Of a DNA stretch of 64,000 nt, positions 2,224-41,907 are shown piece by piece (within the stretch, counting starts at the first letter, position 1; every line of letters begins with the position of its first letter). Source of the stretch: Spiroplasma endosymbiont of Clivina fossor (GTDB taxonomy: Bacteria > Bacillota_I > Bacilli_A > Mycoplasmatales > Nriv7); the NCBI RefSeq assembly GCF_964031115.1, contig NZ_OZ035006.1, positions 1,178,001-1,242,000 on the forward strand. Direction: 5' to 3'. The translations under genes and the position numbers were made by a program. The notes beneath the pieces were generated by a model that saw only the letters and a list, made by a program, of their open reading frames with translations, ran no database searches and had not been told where the DNA came from.

Positions 2224-3739
2224 TTTTAATTTTGTCGAAAACTCTTGATAAAATAAAAAAAATCATCAACTTGATAATTTTAAAAGGCTTTTATGTAAAA
2301 TTACTATTTTTACTTTAACTTTTTTATACATTAAAATATAATACCGCTGTTTGTTGGTTTGGAGTTAAACCCTTATGTTGGTATTTTCATTTTCAGAGAT
2401 TTAAATAATTTTGAATATTAGTAAAACCTAAACCATGATAATGAATTAAGGCTTCTTTAAGACTAGATTGTAATTTACTGATTTTATATTTAAGTTACGA
2501 TAACTAGCTTCAGGATTAATTGTTGTTTTAGTTACACATAAAGTAGAATTTGTTTGTTTTGCTACTAAAAAATATAATTTTTGCATATCAAAAGTAATAA
2601 TTGAATTTTCGTTAATTAATTCTTTGTTCATATTTTCAATAACTCATTGTTTTTGTAAACGTTTGGTGTTTGTGGATTTAACATAAATATTGTTATTATT
2701 ATCAATTGCCATTTGAATACAGCATTTAGTATTAGTTGCGAATGGGTCAAGGTGAATTCTTCGTGGATCAGTTTTATATTTGAAATTTCCTTTATGGATT
2801 TCTTTAATAAATGTTTCATCGATTTGGATTTTACCAGATAATTTTTTAAATTTTAATTGGGTATTTTCTAATTGTTTTGATTTCATTAATTTTTGACGAT
2901 TATATCAAGCAGTTTTTAATGTAGTTTTAATAAAACGAGAAATTGTTTTACTAGATTGCCCCAGCAATGAAATTTGAATCAATAAATTTCATTGTTCATA
3001 TTTTCAATAACTCATTGTTTTTGTAAACGTTTGGTGTTTGTGGATTTAACATAAATATTGTTATTATTATCAGTTGCCATTTGAATACAGCATTTAGTAT
3101 TAGTTGCGAATGGGTCAAGGTGAATTCTTCGTGGATCAGTTTTATATTTGAAATTTCCTTTATGGATTTCTTTAATAAATGTTTCATCGATTTGGATTTT
3201 ACCAGATAATTTTTTAAATTTTAATTGGGTATTTTCTAATTGTTTTGATTTCATTAATTTTTGACGATTATATCAAGCAGTTTTTAATGTAGTTTTAATA
3301 AAACGAGAAATTGTTTTACTAGATTGCCCCAGCAATGAAATTTGAATCAATAAATTTCATTGTTCATAATTTAAATGACTTCAATAAATAAAATGATTAC
3401 GAAAAGCGTCAAAACTTGCACGGCAATTTTTACATAAATATTTTTGTTTTCCTTCTGAATTATGTCCATTTTTAACACAATGGTAAGATTCACATTTAGG
3501 GCATTTAATACCTTGCGATCTAAATTTTTGATCAATTTCATTTAACCGTTTTTGTTTTTTTATTAATTCTGCTTGTTGTTTGACTTTTTCATAAAATTCT
3601 AAAAATTGATCATCTGTTAAAGTATTTACTAGTTCTTGAATTATTTTTTCCATAATTATTATCCACCTCTATCATATTAAAAATATACCTAAAATTAAGT
3701 ATATTCAATAAATATCAAGAGTTTTCGACAAAATTAAAA
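2224..3739 (-). mobile_element. IS-A with internal 368-bp tandem duplication
   Basis: An IS-A flanked by the direct repeat GAAAGTTT (2216-2223 and 3740-3747), which gives the 8-bp target duplication directly. The element is ~1.5 kb rather than 1.15 kb because a 368-bp internal segment occurs twice in tandem (starting near 2628 and 2996). The copies meet at the short repeat TTGTTCATA. They differ by a base at 3072, so the duplication is not brand new or one copy has been converted. Confidence 0.92.
2345..3653 (-). pseudogene. broken IS-A transposase
   Basis: The frame starts normally at 3653 with the zinc ribbon but is shifted by the 368-bp duplication (not a multiple of three). It is shifted again near 2488 by a 2-bp insertion (GATTTTATATTTAAG instead of GATTTTATTTAAG). 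It cannot make an intact transposase. Confidence 0.88.
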
Positions 3740-18618: not shown

Positions 18619-19122
18619 TTAATTTGTTTCTGATTGTGCATTAAATTCTATCATTTTTCACCAGTTTCATGTTACGCCAGCAAAAGTATCTTTTTGATAC
18701 TCAAATTTTATTTTAATATTTTTTATTTTAATATTTTGTTTTTGTTCTTTTTCAATTTCTGTTCATTTTGTATTTATTTGTAATTCGTTAAGTTTTTTAA
18801 TAATATTAACTTGATTTTGATTTATATAACTTTGAATTCGTCCTTTATTGTTCCATAATTCTTCTATAGGATTTATGGGTTTTATTCCTGATTGCTTCTC
18901 TATATCATTTAATAAAAATTGTAATTCTGTTTTTCACGCCGATGCAGGTTTATAAGGAGTTTCATTTTTTCATATTGTAAATTCTGCTTTTGTTAAGTTA
19001 ATTTCAGACACTTGATTACTTTTTTTACTGTCTGAGAGCGTTGGTTTATTTATTTTTTTAGAGCACGCAGTTACGGGCAATATTGTTAATCCTAAAATAG
19101 CCATTATACTTAAAATTTTCAT
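18619..19122 (-). CDS. lipoprotein carrying the P3 adsorption-protein head domain
   Basis: A 167-aa lipoprotein: signal peptide MKILSIMAILGLTILPVTAC with lipobox Cys20, a short linker, then ~125 residues from NQVSEINLTKAEFTIWKNE to the WNWWK region. These are almost the same as residues ~41-165 of the P3 adsorption protein (20239-22122), with only about seven changes noted. It should be anchored on the cell surface. In P2 a lipoprotein at the same place matches P2's own, different head. I infer receptor blocking that excludes related phages; no function has been shown. AAAGGAG precedes the start. Confidence 0.85.
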
Positions 19123-20238: not shown

Positions 20239-22122
20239 TTATATAAAAATTCTTAATATCATTAGAAAGATGGCAAAACCGATTAAAAATTGAAAGGTAT
20301 AGTAAAAAGCTGGTACCGTTTTAAAAATTGGAAAAATAGCAGTTGAAAAGTTAACTGTTGCTTTTGCAATAATTGCTAACGGTCGCAAAATCGTGATGAT
20401 TTGTGAGGCGGTGAGTATTCAGTTTATCATTTTGATACCAGCATTCTGAATGGCACATCCAATATCATTAAAAGTTGGTATTCATCGTCCGGAATATTTG
20501 CAATTTGCCGGCGGAATTAAATCGTCTCATTCACTGTTATTTAAACCATCAGGGATAAAGGCTGTTGAATTTAAGACATTAAAGTCATAAATTTTAAAAT
20601 TGTAGTTAGAGATATTACCTTTGTGATAAAGCGGAAAAGTTAAGGTAAAAATATTAATACCATAACGAATATCAATATCGGTATTGAGATAATTAATACT
20701 GTTAGCGGTTTTGTTGGTTGGCAAGGTAATCAGTTTATTATCATAAGATTTAAGGACATTAAAATCAATTTGATAAATACTATTGGTGTTGTTAATAGCA
20801 TTGTAATTATCTTGGTGCATTTTTTTGTCAAAAGTAAAGAAATAACTTCTTAGTAATAATTCTGAGTTTCCTATAATATTTACTAAGTATTTTTTGGGAT
20901 AAAAGGTAATTAATGAACGATAAAAGAAACCGATTTGAATAAAGTAATCCTTCTTATAGTTTTCTATACCCTTAAAATCAATTTCAGTATGAGTTTTTTC
21001 GTCCATATCAAAAGTCGCATAAAATAAACTAGCAAAGAAATTGCCGAGAATTTCATAGATTTCATCAAAAACATTTTTGTAATCGCTGTCGTTAATACTA
21101 GGAATGTTATTTTTAAAATATAAGTAAATATCATTTTTTAAATCGGGGTCATAGCGCAAAAAACTAAATCTAACATTGAGGTAATTTAAGGTACCAAAAA
21201 GATACTTAATTAGGTAATAATCGTTAGTACTTTTGGTATCATATTTTCAGATTTCGGTTTCACCGTGTAGTAATTGCAAATAGTTATTACCTGCGATTAA
21301 GGTTTTATTAAAAGCTTTAATTTTTAAAATATTCTTATTAATTTCATCTTCACTACTAGAAGTCTTATGATAAAAATAGCTTTCATTTTTAAAGCCGTGG
21401 TTTTTAATTGTGAATTCTTTATAGTAACCTTTTTCTAAGGTGTCAATAAAATTAAATACTGGTGTTCAATAAAGATAAGAGTAATTAAATTTGTCAAAAT
21501 CACCACGATGAATCATTAAATAGTCAAGGTTCTCAATGACATCGTTATAGTTGTGGTTGCCATCAAAGTTAGTGGTTGTTTCTGGTAAATCAATATCAGT
21601 CGTAGGTTTGGCTTTCAATTGTGCATCAAGTTCTAGAATTTTTCACCAGTTTCATTTTACACCGGCAAAAGTATTTTTTTGATACTCAAATTTTATTTTA
21701 ATATTTTTTATTTTAATATTTTGTTTTTGTTCTTTTTCAACTTCTGTTCATTTTGTATTTATTTGTAATTCGTTAAGTTTTTTAATAATATTAACTTGAT
21801 TTTGATTTATATAACTTTGAATTCGTCCTTTATTGTTCCATAATTCTTCTATAGGATTTATGGGTTTTATTCCTGATTGCTTCTCTATATCATTTAATAA
21901 AAATTGTAATTCTGTTTTTCACGCCGATGCAGGTTTATAAGGAGTTTCATTTTTTCATATTGTAAATTCTGCTTTTGTTAAGTTAATTTCAGACACTTGA
22001 TTGTTTTGTCTTTTGTTTCTAATTAGTGATTGTGTTGTTATTTCGTCATTGTTAATGTTTTGGAGAATGGCAAAAATGTTATTGAAACCAATAATTAACA
22101 CGGTAAATATTTTCATAAACAT
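20239..22122 (-). CDS. plectrovirus adsorption (pIII-like) protein, 627 aa
   Basis: A signal peptide (MFMKIFTVLIIGFNNIF), then a head domain (~41-165) unlike that of P2, then a body (from TTDIDLPETTTNFDGNHNYND) nearly identical to P2. The C-terminal region has hydrophobic helices (ILTASQIITILRPLAII and FYYTFQFLIGFAIFLMI). This is the layout of an inovirus receptor-binding/minor coat protein anchored at its C-terminus. The stop lies at the IS-B junction. The head domain recurs in the lipoprotein at 18619-19122. Confidence 0.85.
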
Positions 22123-22137
22123 TTTTATCACTCCTCT

Positions 22138-33049: not shown

Positions 33050-33280
33050 ATGACAATAAACTTAAAAGAATTTAATTGAGAACAAATTAAACAAACTTTC
33101 TGAGATTTATTTATTCAAATTACAACTATTCCAGCTCATATTACTGGTGGTAAAGAAATTAATTTAACTGAAGAGCCACTTTGACTTTTAATAGCAAACA
33201 TTGCTTTTTGATTCTTGACAGCAGTTATGGTGTGATTTATTCTAATGCTACTTTGAAAAACCATATCAGTATTTAGATAG
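33050..33280 (+). CDS. phage small membrane protein (76 aa)
   Basis: Trp-rich amphipathic N-terminus (FNWEQIKQTFWDLF) and C-terminal TM helix; all copies agree closely. Confidence 0.75.
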
Positions 33281-33312
33281 AAGCAAAAGTAATGTCGCGA
33301 AGCTAAATTGTG

Positions 33313-33426
33313 ATGCATTCACAAAGAAATTCAAAATTAATTAGGAAAAAACACAATCGTGTTAAGGTTAATCGTGGTTTTAACAAATTTAAGAAAAACT
33401 TTGAATATAAATGATGAATGTTTTAA
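33313..33426 (+). CDS. phage small basic protein, shortened start (37 aa)
   Basis: In P1, P3 and P4 this protein starts MSRSYIVMHSQ. Here the Tyr codon is TAA (33304-33306), so the upstream ATG at 33292 gives only four residues. The next ATG (33313) would give a 37-aa protein with the basic core intact, but without an obvious ribosome-binding site. It may be inactive. Confidence 0.5.
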
Positions 33427-33445
33427 AAAGAAAGGGGGTGATTAT

Positions 33446-33691
33446 ATGTTTGGAATTTTCTTGGCCGATGCACCAGCAACAGTAGAAAAAATAACAGCTA
33501 GTGACGCGATGACTAAATTGTGAAATGCAATTATAACAGCGTTTACTAAAATGTGAGAAATTATTGCTGTTAATATGCCACAAGTCGGTAACTTCTTTGC
33601 TGACTACTGAATATTCATTTTTCCATTTATTTTGGCAATATTCTTTATTTGCTTTAAAATGTTTGAAAAATTACTTGGAGCTGTACGCTAA
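33446..33691 (+). CDS. plectrovirus major coat protein (81 aa)
   Basis: Begins MFGIFLADAPATVEKITAS; the C-terminal TM helix and KLLGAVR are the same as in P1. Very strong AAAGGGGGTG ribosome-binding site. Expected to be the helical capsid subunit. Confidence 0.83.
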
Positions 33692-33704
33692 CAAAAAAAT
33701 AAAG

Positions 33705-33778
33705 TGAGGTGCAAGATGAAATTTTGCAAATGAATAATAGAAAAAAATAACCATTTTATTGAATTAAATCGCACCTCA
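33705..33778 (+). promoter_or_regulatory. hairpin enclosing the ATPase start codon
   Basis: TGAGGTGC (33705-33712) contains the ribosome-binding site of the ATPase gene, and GCACCTCA (33771-33778) lies 53 nt into the coding sequence. They can form an 8-bp stem. Both halves are unchanged in P1, P2 and P3. The stem could lower ATPase translation relative to coat, or serve as a packaging hairpin on single-stranded DNA. Confidence 0.5.
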
Positions 33779-35299: not shown

Positions 35300-36764
35300 A
35301 TGAAAAAACTTTTAGTAAAATTATTTAAAAAAGATAATTCAAAAGAAAAAGCGCTGTTAAAATTAAGAATTAAAAATTCTTTTAAAAAGCAATGGTTAAA
35401 AATAGCATTAAGTATCATTTTCATCTTTATAAGCTTATTAATTTGTGCATTAACAGCAATCGATACTAAATGAATAACCGGAACAAGTAACGAATTTAAT
35501 AATTTTATGAATAGACTTCTTGCAAAATTAATATGATAATTATAATTTTTAAATTTAAAATAAATATAAAAGTGTTATTAAAATAATTTTTAGATTATTT
35601 TTACAAATATTTTGTCATTAAAACATAATAAAAATTATTATTTACAATAAAAAAAGACTGAAATTTTAAATTATCAAATATATTTAAACTAATAGTTGTA
35701 AATTATAAATTGAAGCTATTAAATTAAATCTTAAAGCAAATCTTTTTCTACGATTTCGATATTTTTCACTAATAATTTTAAATTTTTTAAGTATAGCAAA
35801 AACATTTTCAATAACAATTCTCATTTTTGAAATTCGCTCATTATTTTGCTTTTCTTCTTTATTTAAAGGGTTTTTCTTTGATTTTCTTTTAGGAATTAAA
35901 ACATTATGATTAATTTTTTGTATGCCTTGATAACCTAAATCCACTAAAACAGTTGTTTCTGGTAAAAATTTAATTTTTGAATCTTTTAAAATTTTAAAGT
36001 CATGGTTTTTACCATAAGAAAAATCAGAACTAATAATTTTTTTACTATCTTTTTCAATTATAACTTGTGTTTTTATTGTGTGTTTTTTCTTTTTTCCTGA
36101 GTAGTGCTGTTTTTGTCTTTTTTTGGGCGTTGGATTTGGCTTTCAGTTACATCAATTATAACAGTCTTATCTTTGAAATAATCTTTTAATAGTGATTTTT
36201 GACCAGTAAGTTGTTGAAAATTAGGGTGTTTTATTAAAGTGTCTTCAATTCATTTGATATTTCTATAACAACTACTTTCACTAATATCATAACTTTTTGC
36301 AATATGAAAATAAGTTCTATATTCTCTTCAATATTCTAAAGTCATTAAAATACGATTTTCTAATGATAATTTATTGGTTCTTCCGCGACGAAATCTCTTT
36401 TTTAATTCTTCTATTTTTAAAATTTCTAGCATTTTATTAAAAGTAGTATGTTTAATACCAGTTAATCTTAAAAAATTTTTATCACTTATTTGATTATTTT
36501 TTTTTAAATTTCATTTAAATTCCACCTTTTTATTAAAAACAACAATTCAATTATATTTTAAATTAATTTTGCAAGAAGTCTAATGAAGAGATGGTTAAAT
36601 TCTTTGGAAAGTTCAATAGTGGTATTATGCTGGCAGGAATATTTGTTTTTTGATGAGGCGGAGCAATATATTTTGCAATTAAATTTGAAAAATTAATCCG
36701 CTTTATTGTTCAGAAAATTAGAGCAAAAAGAGTCTTGAAAAATGAAATCAAACAAACTCATTAA
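35300..36764 (+). pseudogene. phage two-TM protein interrupted by IS-B
   Basis: Codons 1-71 (35300-35512) and the rest (36582-36764) flank an IS-B; AAT is duplicated. Removing the element restores the 130-aa protein seen in P1. This membrane protein is therefore lost in P2 unless it is supplied by another prophage. Confidence 0.85.
35513..36581 (-). mobile_element. IS-B with frameshifted ORFA (1069 bp)
   Basis: Flanked by AAT (35510-35512, 36582-36584). One extra T at the run near 36500 adds an A to the KKNN stretch, so ORFA stops within a few codons of its start at 36514. ORFB (to 35684) is intact. The only full-length copy in this window that is clearly dead. Confidence 0.92.
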
Positions 36765-37029: not shown

Positions 37030-38907
37030 ATGTTTATGAAAATATTTACCGTGCTAATTATTAGTTTCAATAACATTTTTACCATTTCCCAAAACATTAA
37101 CAATGCCAAAACAACAACACAATCACTAATTAGAAGTAAAAGGCAAAATAATGAATCATACGAATTAAACTTAAAAAAATCAAAATTAACACTTAAATCA
37201 TCAAAAAATGACAACAGCAAGTGAAATCAAAAATGAGAAATAAAAGTTAATGTAGAAAATGAATTTATGCCCAAAAACTTGCCTCCGCGAATGAAACTTA
37301 ATGATTGAGAATTTTATGTTGATAAAAATGACAAGATTACACTACCAATATTAAAATCATTAGAATATGATTTAAATTGAGAAAAAAACAGTGAACCAAG
37401 ATATTGAGAAAATAAAGATTTATTATCATATCAAAATAAAAAATTAAAAAACATAAAAATGAAAGTACAAGAATGAGATAAAAATGAAAGATATGCCAAA
37501 TGAAAAATATTAGAATTTGACGCACAATCAGAAATTAAACCCTCGACTGATATTGATTTACCAGAAAAAACCACCAAATTTGATGGCAACCATAACTATA
37601 ACGATGTTGTTGATAATCTTGATTACTTAATGATTCACCGTGGTGATTTTGATAAATTTAATTACTCGTATCTCTATTGAACGCCCGTATTTAATTTCAT
37701 TGACACCCTAGAAAAAGGTTATTACAAAGAATTTACGATTAAAAATCACGGCTTTAAAGACGAGAGCTATTTTTATCATAAAACTTCTAGTGATAAAAAT
37801 GTAGTAAATGAGAATGTTTTGAAAATTAAGGCATTTAACAAAACTCTAATTGCTGGAAATAAGTATTTACAATTGCTACACGGTGAAAATGAAATCTGAA
37901 AATATGGCACTACGAATTCTAACGATTATTACCTAATTAAATATCTTTTTGGTACCCTAAATTACCTCAATGTTAGATTTAGTTTTCTACGCTATGACCC
38001 CGATTTAAAAAATGATATTTACCTTTATTTTAAAAACAACATTCCTAGTATCAACAATAGCGATTACAAAAATGTTTTTAACGAAATCTATGAAATTCTT
38101 GGCAATTTCTTTGCTAGTTTATTTTATGCGACTTTTGATATGGACGAAAAAACTCATACCGAAATTGATTTTAAGGGTGTAGAAAACTATAAGAAGGATT
38201 ACTTTATTCAAATCGGTTTCTTTTATCGTTCATTAATTACCTTTTATCCCAAAAAATACTTAGTAAATATTATAGGAAACTCAGAATTATTACTAAGAAG
38301 TTATTTCTTTACTTTTGACAAAAAAATGCACCAAGATAATTACAATGCTATTAACAACACCAATAGTATTTATCAAATTGATTTTAATGTCCTTAAATCT
38401 TATGATAATAAACTCATTGCCTTGCCAACCAACAAAACCGCTAACAGTATTAATTATCTAAATACCGATATTGATATTCGTTATGGTATTAACATTTTTA
38501 CCTTAACTTTTCCACTTTATCACAAAGGGAATATCTCCAACTACAATTTTAAAATTTATGACTTTAATGTATTAAATTCAACAGCCTTTATCCCTGATGG
38601 CTCAAATAACAGTGAATGAGACGATTTAATTCCACCAGCAAATTGCAAATATTCTGGACGATGAATACCAACCTTTAATGATATTGGTTGTGCCATTCAA
38701 AATGCTAGTATCAAAATGATAAACTGAATACTCACAGCTTCACAAATCATCACGATTTTGCGACCGTTAGCAATTATTGCAAAAGCAACAGTTAACTTTT
38801 CAACCGCCATTTTTCCAGTTTTTAAAACGGTACCAGCTTTTTACTATACCTTTCAATTTTTAATCGGTTTTGCCATTTTTCTAATGATATTAAGAATTTT
38901 TGTATAA
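37030..38907 (+). CDS. plectrovirus adsorption (pIII-like) protein, 625 aa
   Basis: Signal peptide (MFMKIFTVLIISFNNIF), head domain at residues 41-163 (from NESYELNLKKSKL to KWKILEF) and a body conserved with P3 from TDIDLPE onward. Two C-terminal hydrophobic helices probably anchor it in the virion or membrane. AAGGAG ribosome-binding site. The head is repeated almost exactly in the next gene. Function as receptor-binding protein is inferred from position, size, secretion signal and modular variation. Confidence 0.85.
37150..37518 (+). repeat. 369-bp head-domain repeat, first copy
   Basis: Direct repeat of 39058-39426 within the adsorption gene. I count about five base differences and no indels. 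The coding frame is kept in both, and the similarity stops sharply at both ends. Confidence 0.92.
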
Positions 38908-38930
38908 TTATATATATATATATATATATA
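38903..38930 (+). promoter_or_regulatory. lipoprotein promoter with (TA)11 tract
   Basis: TATAAT (38903-38908, with upstream TG) overlaps the adsorption stop codon and runs directly into eleven TA units (38909-38930). The tract lies in the leader 32 bp before the lipoprotein ATG. Length changes could alter promoter strength or leader structure. Confidence 0.5.
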
Positions 38931-38961
38931 CTTGAAAAAACAAAATGAAGGAGTTAAATTT

Positions 38962-39450
38962 ATGAAAATTTTAAATATAATAGCTCTTTTGGGGATGACA
39001 ACATTGCCAATAGTTGGGTGTTCTAAAAAAGAAAATAAACCAATATTACAAATTAAGAATGAGTCATACGAATTAAACTTAAAAAAATCAAAATTAACAC
39101 TTAAATCATCAAAAGATGACAACAGCAAGTGAAATCAAAAATGAGAAATAAAAGTTAATGTAGAAAATGAATTTATGCCCAAAAACTTGCCTCCGCGAAT
39201 GAAACTTAATGATTGAGAATTTTATGTTGATAAAAATGACAAGATTACACTACCAATATTAAAATCATTAGAATATGATTTAAATTGAGAAAAAAACAGT
39301 GAACCAAGATATTGAGAAAATAAAGATTTTTTATCATATCAAAATAAAAAATTAAAAAACATAAAAATGAAAATACAAGAATGAGATAAAAATGAAAGAT
39401 ATGCCAAATGAAAAATATTAGAATTTAAAACTGAATTTAAAAATAATTAA
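38962..39450 (+). CDS. lipoprotein carrying the P2 adsorption-protein head domain
   Basis: A 162-aa lipoprotein: signal peptide MKILNIIALLGMTTLPIVGC with Cys20, a short linker, then residues ~33-155 matching residues 41-163 of the P2 adsorption protein with about three changes. It ends with FKTEFKNN instead of continuing into the phage body. The N-terminus (MKIL..ILPV/GCSKK) resembles the P3 lipoprotein, while the domain matches only its own phage. GAAGGAG ribosome-binding site. Proposed superinfection-exclusion factor. Confidence 0.87.
39058..39426 (+). repeat. 369-bp head-domain repeat, second copy
   Basis: Partner of 37150-37518, inside the lipoprotein gene. Confidence 0.92.
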
Positions 39451-39702: not shown

Positions 39703-41907
39703 TTATTCTACTCCTAGTCAATCGCCTTCAGTGTTGGTTATAATGACAAAACCATCATTTTCATTATCTAATATTTCAAAATAACCATTTATTTGTTCGA
39801 AATGAAGTACTATTACTTTTACAAAAGTGTTGAAATCTTCATTTGTGACACTTCCGCCTCAACCAGAATGGTCATTTATAACAAATTTATTTTTAATAAT
39901 TTTTATAATGTTTGCTGGTGAATTTTTATTTTGTTTGATTTCATTTCATGTGTTTTTGTTAATTTTAATTTTTAATTTATCATGGGCTAGAAATTTATAT
40001 CATTTTTCAATGTTATCATAAACATTATGATGAATTGAAGTTGGCAACGCAATATCAGATGTTGCATGATGATGAAAAGCAAAATATATTCATGTTCCTG
40101 CAATTGCTAATCCTCCGATTACTAAGGATAGCCCTAGAGTTTCCGGAGCCAGAGCGGCAGCGGTACCAGTTTCTACAGCTATAACTCCACCTTCAACTGC
40201 TGCTGTTTCGGCCACAGTAATTGTTTCTGCAGCGGCTAAGCTTTCTGTTGTACTTGTTGATAAGAGTGGGGTCATTTCGATTGCTTCTGCATTTGTGGCA
40301 CCAGTAGTAGCAGTACCACTAACAGTCATTTTTGTTCCATAAGCTGTTAATGTGCCCCCACTTAAAGCTGCTAATCCAGTATTTGTTAATTTTTCTTTAA
40401 AAGCTTTTTTATCATTTTCAGATAATGTTTGATAATAACGATTAATTTCATTTAATTTTTTTAATTTTTCTTCTTTTGAAAGAGCGTTGTATTGATTTAT
40501 TGCCTTAGCGGTTGTTGTTTGTAAATTTTCCATATTTGTATTGATGGGTTGATTTCCTGCCGGGGCATTTTGTTTTATTTCGTCTTTATTGTTTTTAATT
40601 AAGTTAATTTCTAAATTTTCATCATTTTTTAAACTATCATCTTCTGTTTTTTTATCCACAAAATGATATTTATCTTTTTGTAATGATGTTATTGTTGGTT
40701 CTGGTACATTGGCAATATTATTGCCTTGATGAGCATCATCGTCCTCGTTATTGTTAGTCGGAATGGCGCGGTGTTGAGCATGATCATCAACCGGTAATTT
40801 AATTGGTTTTACCTCTGGTTTTGGGGTGGTTGTTGGGAAATTATCTGGTCTCTTGGTTATATCAATTACCGGGACATTTTCCTGATTGTCATTAATAGCA
40901 ATAGGCTGATTTGGCCGATCTTCTTCTGGTGTTAAAGCAAAATTATAATGATTGTGAATACCCGAACCTTTTTCAAGCTCAACATAAGATATCGCGATGT
41001 TATTATTATTTGAATTTTGATTAACTGGTTGATAAGAGCCATTATTATTTACACTAATATTAGCATTTAAAAGATTGCTCATTGCTATTATTTCTGGTGT
41101 TCCCCCTCATGTTGAAAATTGTCGCATTATTTCTAAGTAATTAGTATCAATATCATTATTATCTTGAATAAGACTTCTAAATGTTAATTCGCCATTGCGA
41201 TTTGGAATTGTCTCTAAATTTGATTGTATATAATCAACAACGCGATTACGAAAGAAATTTATAACTAGATTATTTGCTGTTTGATCTTGATATCATAATT
41301 GATTTAGATTTCTATTATTTTCTAAATCATGTTGTTGTAGTAATTTTTGAATATATAATAAATATTTTAAATTTTCTTCACCAAATAATTGGATAAATCG
41401 GTTTCTAAATTCTTCATTATTATTTCTCGCTGGCAATAAGTAAGATGTTGATACCGACCAAAACAAACAACTATTATCTGCTGGCACATCATACAAATTA
41501 TTGTGATTTGTTGGCTCATCTGAATTATTTTGTTGTATGCGGTTACTAGCTTGTGTTTGACTTCCGTCAGCATTTGTATTACTGTTATCGGATTGTTTTA
41601 AAGTTACTGTACTTCCTTTAGGCCGTGTTCCCTGTTTTTTAGATTCATCTTCTGTAATTATTTTTTGTGCATCATTTGGTTTTCTTGCTTTTTTAGCAAG
41701 TGTAAATATAACTTTGACTGCACCATCAGAATATACACTTTGATCAATTGATTCAATAGTTGCCGCAGTATCAGTAATGCTATTTTTTTGTACTTTAACT
41801 TGATCAATATCTAAGCCAAAATTTAATTCTCTAACACGATTTAAAATTGTCTGTTCTTGCTTATCTGATATTTCTTCTAACTTAGTTTGTCTAATAACAT
41901 CTGACAA
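39703..41907 (-). CDS. OTU-domain deubiquitinase-like protein, possible effector (734 aa)
   Basis: Code 4 joins the frames into one protein. Residues ~1-135 are polar. An OTU cysteine-protease domain follows, with VPADNSCLFWSVS (Asp144, catalytic Cys147) and the closing YVELEKGSGIHNHYNFAL (catalytic His320 by position). Residues ~326-560 are low-complexity and acidic, with Pro/Asn-rich stretches. A hydrophobic helix (LGLSLVIGGLAIAGTWIYFAF, ~590-612) and a ~120-residue C-terminal domain follow. No signal peptide is visible, and the TTG start at 41907 has no clear ribosome-binding site. The frame is open to ~41997, so the true N-terminus is uncertain. OTU domains occur in spiroplasma toxins such as Spaid; bacteria lack ubiquitin, so a host target is likely. 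Confidence 0.8.

What the first reader, a model, noticed from the sequence alone, without database searches (positions are those of the whole stretch)
37030..39450. P2: lipoprotein carrying a copy of its own phage's receptor-binding head (candidate superinfection exclusion)
Seen: 369 bp (37150-37518) of the adsorption gene recur at 39058-39426 inside the next gene, with ~5 base differences. There it is fused to a lipoprotein signal peptide (Cys20) and stops where the phage body would begin. Known: expression of inovirus pIII N-domains makes cells resistant, and some phages use lipoproteins (T5 Llp) to block receptors. Inference: the anchored domain occupies the host receptor so that related virions cannot attach.
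Basis: partly seen in the sequence, partly recalled or inferred. Interest (0 to 1): 0.95.

Follow-up and report, generated by a model that had tools for sequence, protein, structure and literature searches.

The report
Phage adhesin head copied onto lipoprotein
In spiroplasma bacteria, phage genes for a predicted adhesion protein are usually paired with a neighbouring gene that carries a matching copy of that same phage's variable tip on a predicted membrane lipoprotein, which likely blocks the cell's docking sites so that phages of the same tip type cannot attach.

Summary
37150-37518 recurs at 39058-39426 with 4 differences in 369 bases, inside an ORF with a lipoprotein signal (Cys20). In the host genome and four congeners, 64 of 71 near-full-length adhesin ORFs are followed by a lipoprotein ORF carrying that adhesin's own head: 49 unique pairs, 27 head types. 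A lipoprotein-first survey, which could have shown mismatches, found 89 of 90 testable lipoproteins matched. Tails are about 92% identical whatever the head. SpV1-type phages show the same pairing with the lipoprotein antisense: 24 of 26 loci match their own ORF1 best. SVTS2 and SVGII3, whose shorter ORF1 lacks the head, show no copy. Both head copies are under purifying selection and travel together although the tail between them differs. Best explanation: type-specific superinfection exclusion by receptor occupancy, as Ff pIII does, but from a dedicated lipid-anchored copy. Expression, binding and protection are untested, and one genomic test of exclusion was not significant. No description was found in the open papers searched; two phage records annotate the DNA repeat only.

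The parts
37030..38907 (+). adhesin (ORF1/CoaA-like), 625 aa, code 4; N-terminal hydrophobic segment, head, conserved tail, C-terminal helix
   Evidence: ORF; tail similar to SVTS2 ORF1, E 2e-6 pairwise, whose g1 ICTV labels adhesion protein
37150..37518 (+). head of the adhesin (residues 41-163): hypervariable, predicted receptor-binding domain
   Evidence: repeat; 27 head types on tails about 92% identical; function inferred
38909..38930 (+). (TA)n tract between adhesin stop and lipoprotein ribosome-binding site
   Evidence: sequence; n = 2-19 in 46 window-type spacers
38947..38955 (+). GAAGGAGTT, ribosome-binding site of the lipoprotein gene
   Evidence: sequence; by eye
38962..39450 (+). 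lipoprotein carrying the head copy, 162 aa
   Evidence: ORF; matched partner at 64 of 71 loci
38962..39021 (+). signal peptide with lipobox ending at Cys20
   Evidence: sequence; conserved in the lipoprotein alignment; no NCBIfam hit for this protein, hits for the SpV1-type ones
39058..39426 (+). head copy in the lipoprotein (residues 33-155)
   Evidence: 4 of 369 bases differ from the adhesin head
20239..22131 (-). adhesin of the second phage in the window, a different head type (type 9)
18619..19122 (-). lipoprotein matched to the second adhesin (90% aa), 1.1 kb away behind an ORF that reads as a transposase

Best explanation
The second gene encodes a predicted lipoprotein that carries a copy of the predicted receptor-binding head of its own phage's adhesin and likely occupies the cell's receptor, so that virions with the same head type would not attach. 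Shown by sequence: the copy, its lipoprotein signal, its place beside the adhesin, the one-to-one match of head types across phages, and purifying selection on both copies. Inferred: that the head is the receptor-binding part, that the lipoprotein is made and reaches the outer face of the single membrane, that it binds the same receptor in cis, and that this excludes same-type phages and keeps released virions from sticking to their producer. Each phage would thus carry its own type-specific immunity, and the pair must be exchanged together when a phage changes its head.
For: (1) Pairing: 64 of 71 near-full-length adhesin ORFs in five genomes have the matched lipoprotein; 62 of the 64 lie between -7 and +72 bp of the adhesin stop. 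Because these pairs were chosen by match, the fair test is lipoprotein-first: of 111 lipoprotein ORFs, 90 have a head upstream and 89 of these match at 73-99%. (2) Specificity: 49 unique pairs, 27 types, 49 of 49 best matches to own type against a shuffle mean of 2.5, maximum 12. (3) Same design with the lipoprotein antisense and the head internal in SpV1-type phages: 24 of 26 loci; NCBI already names one such gene 'lipoprotein', and NCBIfam LP_plasma scores 34-35 against a cut-off of 24 in the two tested. (4) SVTS2 and SVGII3, whose ORF1 lacks the head, show no copy. (5) Selection: omega 0.28 among adhesin heads and 0.33 among lipoprotein heads of a type. (6) Adhesin and lipoprotein heads keep fixed differences (3-28 per type, 12 types), so they are separate lineages; in 8 of 12 types some loci share both heads (distance up to 0.05) while the tail between them differs more (examples). 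(7) Precedent in the same order: endogenous Ff pIII saturates TolA and blocks superinfection (PMC7070036, passage).
Against: No expression, localisation, binding or infection data. Independent same-type loci within one genome are 4 against 7.35 expected, P = 0.09, so exclusion leaves no significant mark. Mismatches exist: R8A2B's lipoprotein matches another phage's head better (62% against 33%) and one decayed locus pairs different types at 41%. Partners differ by replacement changes (omega 0.59), so the copy is not kept identical. 7 of 71 adhesins have no partner. The head models are weak (pLDDT 44.7 and 63.5) and no fold match is significant.
Confidence: 0.7

Rival explanations
1. Decoy or self-recognition: the lipoprotein head binds the head of virions (head to head) rather than the host receptor, and traps or misdirects phages of its own type, or helps dock the adhesin at the assembly site.
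For: Explains type matching equally well. Both proteins are predicted to sit in the same membrane before assembly.
Against: No sign of self-assembly of the head was tested. A copy of a ligand more simply competes for the ligand's target, and pIII has that precedent (passage).
Confidence: 0.13
2. DNA-level element: the copy is a repeat or silent cassette for recombination, replacing or varying the adhesin head.
For: Heads do vary by modular exchange. C74 and SkV1 records annotate the copy only as a repeat.
Against: The copy keeps a signal peptide, a ribosome-binding site and omega 0.33; it is direct in one group and inverted in another yet reads as a lipoprotein in both; fixed differences between partners speak against regular conversion; a cassette identical in type to the expressed head would bring no new type.
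Confidence: 0.06
3. Virion or assembly part: the lipoprotein is a second tip protein of the virion, matched to the adhesin because the two pack together.
For: Adjacent genes, type matching.
Against: Tails, which would mediate packing in the virion, are shared between types while only heads match; SpV1-type phages encode it on the strand opposite to the other annotated genes.
Confidence: 0.06
4. Host-directed adhesin or surface coat: the displayed head serves the spiroplasma, for example in binding insect cells, and the phage is only the carrier.
For: 10 lipoprotein ORFs stand without any adhesin ORF within 3 kb.
Against: Does not explain why the type must match the neighbouring adhesin.
Confidence: 0.05

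Closest known systems
Ff phage pIII superinfection immunity (saturation of TolA)
   Same: Same virus order (Tubulavirales, recalled; Plectroviridae stated); the adsorption protein's own domain in the infected cell blocks the receptor (PMC7070036, passage)
   Different: Ff uses the virion protein itself; here a separate gene gives only the head, with a lipoprotein signal, and in dozens of matched allelic types
Phage T5 Llp
   Same: Small phage lipoprotein encoded next to and downstream of the receptor-binding protein gene, blocks the receptor (PMC9586334, passages)
   Different: Llp acts from the periplasm by changing FhuA (same passages); the passages describe no copy of pb5 in it. Here the lipoprotein is a copy of the adhesin head
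MAV1 Vir lipoprotein of Mycoplasma arthritidis
   Same: Phage-encoded surface lipoprotein of a wall-less bacterium that gives resistance to superinfection (PMC7466169, passage)
   Different: Different kind of phage (recalled); whether Vir copies a MAV1 adhesin is not said in the passage and was not tested; the primary paper is not held
Repeat regions annotated in SpV1-C74 and SkV1_CR2-3x
   Same: The very same head copies, seen as DNA repeats
   Different: In these records the repeat carries no annotated lipoprotein gene and no function
Resistance of S. citri lines with integrated SVTS2 DNA
   Same: Integrated plectrovirus sequence goes with virus resistance (as cited in PMC8140453, passage)
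   Different: SVTS2 has no head copy, so that resistance must rest on something else; primary paper not held

Membership tests
Plectrovirus adhesion protein (ORF1/CoaA) | homologous tail | tested here: met
   pairwise blastp to SVTS2 ORF1 E 2e-6; weak to SpV1 ORF1, E 0.2-0.7
Plectrovirus adhesion protein (ORF1/CoaA) | Pfam PF12461 (Spiroplasma phage ORF1-like) | tested here: not met
   no such hit for the window protein; SkV1 ORF1 hits at 2e-259. So it is a relative, not a PF12461 member
Plectrovirus adhesion protein (ORF1/CoaA) | binds the host cell | not testable with these tools
   needs an adsorption assay
Mollicute lipoprotein | signal peptide with lipobox cysteine near residue 20 | tested here: met
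   Cys20 by sequence; cysteine invariant in 15 window-type and 11 class B lipoproteins aligned
Mollicute lipoprotein | NCBIfam LP_plasma (NF038029) | tested here: inconclusive
   no hit for the window and class B proteins; 34.0 and 35.3 bits against cut-off 24 for two SpV1-type ones
Superinfection exclusion by the adsorption domain (Ff pIII type) | domain of the phage's own adsorption protein is present in the infected cell | tested here: met
   as coding capacity only: copy of the head in 64 of 71 loci
Superinfection exclusion by the adsorption domain (Ff pIII type) | carried by the virion protein itself | tested here: not met
   a separate ORF
Superinfection exclusion by the adsorption domain (Ff pIII type) | saturates the receptor and blocks adsorption | not testable with these tools
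   needs infection assays; the genomic depletion test gave P = 0.09
T5 Llp-type exclusion lipoprotein | small lipoprotein gene directly downstream of the receptor-binding protein gene | tested here: met
   62 of 64 pairs within -7 to +72 bp, same strand; antisense in SpV1-type phages
T5 Llp-type exclusion lipoprotein | sequence homology to Llp | not tested
   not compared; the protein is a copy of the adhesin head
MAV1 Vir lipoprotein | sequence homology to Vir | not tested
   not compared

The most novel reading that the evidence does not exclude
Spiroplasma plectroviruses form dozens of immunity groups: each phage carries a hypervariable head twice, once as the key on the virion and once as a lipid-anchored block on the cell it lives in, and the two are swapped as a set, so that a cell is closed to its own phage type but open to others. 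The (TA)n tract before the lipoprotein gene may switch or tune this immunity.
Probability: 0.5. Interest if true: 0.9.

Novelty: new variant of a known kind. Interest (0 to 1): 0.86.

Why it matters
If true, these phages carry matched attack and immunity copies of one domain, a self/non-self code with at least 27 types in five genomes that can be read from sequence alone. It would explain how one spiroplasma genome holds many phages of different types, give a way to predict which phages exclude each other, and turn the head into a probe for the unknown plectrovirus receptors. It also makes a long-visible but unexplained repeat in SpV1 genomes testable.

Tried and rejected

Considered and rejected: gene conversion as the cause of matching (fixed differences between partners); a single exchanged block including the tail (tails differ more than both heads); repeat with DNA function only. 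Depletion of same-type loci within a genome, expected under exclusion, was not significant (4 against 7.35, P = 0.09; 44 loci after dropping near-identical copies).

Limits of the counts: one search scored the best 21 candidates per genome and the best 4, so the samples are capped. One search took ORFs of at least 590 aa and pairs at E < 1e-15, so mismatched lipoproteins could not enter it; some searches were run to mend that (ORFs of at least 120 aa with a signal part, not cut by the fetched edge). For one search I gave 26 of 35 loci of the SpV1 type (L199-L201, L215-L244, L245, L246); the 9 left out are 8 without a head-bearing ORF1 (L223-L225, L231-L234, L241) and L242, the same place as L222. 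A hit of G003 1230936 (26% over 72 residues to the tail) was spurious and dropped.

Papers: whole text of PMC8295915; passages of PMC7466169, PMC8140453, PMC9586334, PMC6813254, PMC11436027, PMC7070036; all others as search listings with abstract starts. That the pairing is not in print rests on these nine searches of an open-access library only; subscription papers on SpV1 were not seen.

Full report
WHAT IS THERE. The window is G000:C1:1178001-1242000 of a 2,045,693-base genome. Read with code 4, 37030-38907 encodes a 625-aa protein and 38962-39450 a 162-aa protein with a lipoprotein signal. Residues 41-163 of the first recur as residues 33-155 of the second, with 4 of 369 bases and 3 of 123 residues different. 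The first protein follows small membrane proteins and an ATPase-like ORF typical, by my reading, of a filamentous phage; its tail resembles ORF1 of Spiroplasma phage SVTS2 (pairwise E 2e-6), whose g1 ICTV labels adhesion protein (PMC8295915, whole text). I call it the adhesin and its variable part the head; that the head binds the receptor is inferred.

IS THE PAIRING GENERAL? A protein search of the host genome gave 92 matches; among 59 genomes searched for relatives, clear matches lay only in the same genus. I fetched stretches around the matches in G000-G004. Of 71 adhesin ORFs of at least 590 aa, 64 have downstream a lipoprotein ORF that matches the head of that adhesin: 47 of class A (the window's) and 17 of class B (tails about 45% identical to class A). 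In 62 of the 64 it lies -7 to +72 bp from the adhesin stop; in two it lies about 1.1-1.2 kb away, in the window's second pair behind an ORF that reads as a transposase. Of the 7 without partner, 4 have an ORF that reads as a transposase directly downstream (by eye), 2 have a lipoprotein stretch with stops (G002 33273-33710 and 1188527-1188979), and G003 1230936 is unresolved.

SPECIFICITY. The 64 pairs reduce to 49 unique ones and 27 head types at 70% identity. Each lipoprotein's best adhesin head is of its own type in 49 of 49; shuffled labels give a mean of 2.5 and a maximum of 12 in 100,000, or within classes a mean of 4.6 and a maximum of 14 in 20,000. Other types score near background, about 20 bits, against typically 200 or more. 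Because these pairs were chosen by match, I also went from the lipoproteins: of 111 lipoprotein ORFs, 90 have an upstream ORF with a similar head, none faces a full-length adhesin of another type, 11 lie beside adhesin remnants without head and 10 have no adhesin ORF within 3 kb. Of the 90, 89 match at 73-99%; one, in a decayed locus of G002, pairs different types at 41%. 62 of the 90 were already in the first set and 28 are new.

A SECOND GROUP WITH THE OPPOSITE ORIENTATION. SkV1_CR2-3x and C74 records annotate a repeat inside ORF1 and behind it. In SkV1 the second copy is read on the opposite strand as a 155-aa lipoprotein. A search of 248 genomes with SkV1 ORF1 found matches in 11, nine of them in one genus. 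The exceptions are S. citri D4 (L246), whose lipoprotein is split, and R8A2B, whose lipoprotein is 33% identical to its own ORF1 but 62% to that of L226. NCBI already calls one such gene 'lipoprotein' next to DUF3688. SVTS2 and SVGII3 have shorter ORF1 proteins that align only with the tail region; no lipoprotein copy was found in them, apart from a 23-residue match of E 8e-4 in SVTS2 that I take as chance.

SELECTION AND HISTORY. Between partners omega is 0.59 (one pair per type, 27 types); among adhesin heads of one type 0.28, among lipoprotein heads 0.33, among tails 0.10 (36 locus pairs each). The lipoprotein head is thus kept as a protein about as strictly as the adhesin head. In 12 types with two or more unique loci, adhesin and lipoprotein heads carry 3-28 fixed differences, and same-locus distances resemble cross-locus ones, so the two are separate lineages that stay together. 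In 8 of these 12 types some loci have tails 0.06-0.14 apart while both heads are at most 0.05 apart. Example of one type on two backbones: adhesin head 97.5%, tail 86.9%, lipoprotein head 100%. Example of two types on one backbone in the same genome: adhesin head 63.9%, tail 96.7%, signal and spacer 98.2%, lipoprotein head 62.4%. The tail lies between the heads, so this history suggests that both heads are replaced and mismatched intermediates are lost. R8A2B and the G002 locus may be such intermediates (inference).

HOW IT LIKELY WORKS. Shown: the copy, the lipoprotein signal, the type match, the selection. Inferred: surface display, receptor binding in cis, exclusion. A copy of a ligand held on the cell competes for the ligand's target. 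Ff phages do this with pIII itself (PMC7070036, passage). T5 uses a small lipoprotein encoded downstream of its receptor-binding protein (PMC9586334, passages), and phage MAV1 of Mycoplasma arthritidis a surface lipoprotein (PMC7466169, passage). None of these passages describes a lipoprotein that copies the phage's own binding domain, nor type-matched sets. The same block would stop progeny from re-adsorbing to their producer; sequence cannot separate the two benefits.

AGAINST. There are no functional data. Independent same-type loci in one genome are fewer than expected, but not significantly (4 against 7.35, P = 0.09). Partners have diverged by replacement changes. The head model is moderate and its fold unresolved. 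A head-to-head decoy remains open.

NOVELTY. Nine literature searches in an open-access library returned no listing that describes this; older subscription papers on SpV1 were not available. The proteins are named hypothetical where named, or lipoprotein in S. citri. I rate it a new variant of a known kind, superinfection exclusion by receptor occupancy.

Noticed in passing
window 38909-38930 and the same place in other class A loci: A (TA)n tract spans the adhesin stop and the lipoprotein ribosome-binding site; n is 2-19 in 46 spacers and differs among copies with identical heads, for example 9/11/11, 10/10/8/8/10 and 15/14/10. The 7 class B spacers printed have no such run. It may make the lipoprotein's expression variable.
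   Followed up: partly
adhesin residues 35-38 (window 37132-37143): A basic R-x-K-R stretch just before the head is nearly invariant in classes A and B (R35, K37, R38), although the head after it is hypervariable; it might be a cleavage site. The lipoprotein lacks it.
   Followed up: no
L199 (X51344) 3039-3440: R8A2B's antisense lipoprotein head resembles that of another SpV1-type phage (L226, 62%) more than its own ORF1 (33%): a possible head-swap intermediate or a block against a rival.
   Followed up: partly
G000 441639, 985308, 1341936 and others: 10 lipoprotein ORFs of this family stand without an adhesin ORF within 3 kb, several next to ORFs that read as transposases. They may be relics or retained immunity genes.
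   Followed up: partly
window 39703-41907 (-): A 734-aa ORF with an OTU-like cysteine protease domain (E 3e-8) lies next to the lipoprotein, convergent with it; antisense ORFs of the same gene also show up downstream of several other lipoproteins. A cargo gene or effector by appearance; described only.
   Followed up: no
window 35684-36525 (-): ORFs that read as a transposase lie inside the phage ahead of the adhesin; a phage ORF that is 206 aa in the second phage (22388-23008) appears here only in pieces.
   Followed up: no
G000 505683, 839980; G004 175843 and similar: Some class A adhesins are about 700-734 aa because of an insertion near residue 258-287, part of which seems duplicated.
   Followed up: no
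lipoprotein profiles A3 and A4: Profiles made from the lipoproteins also find adhesin heads of many types, so the types seem to be divergent members of one domain family.
   Followed up: no
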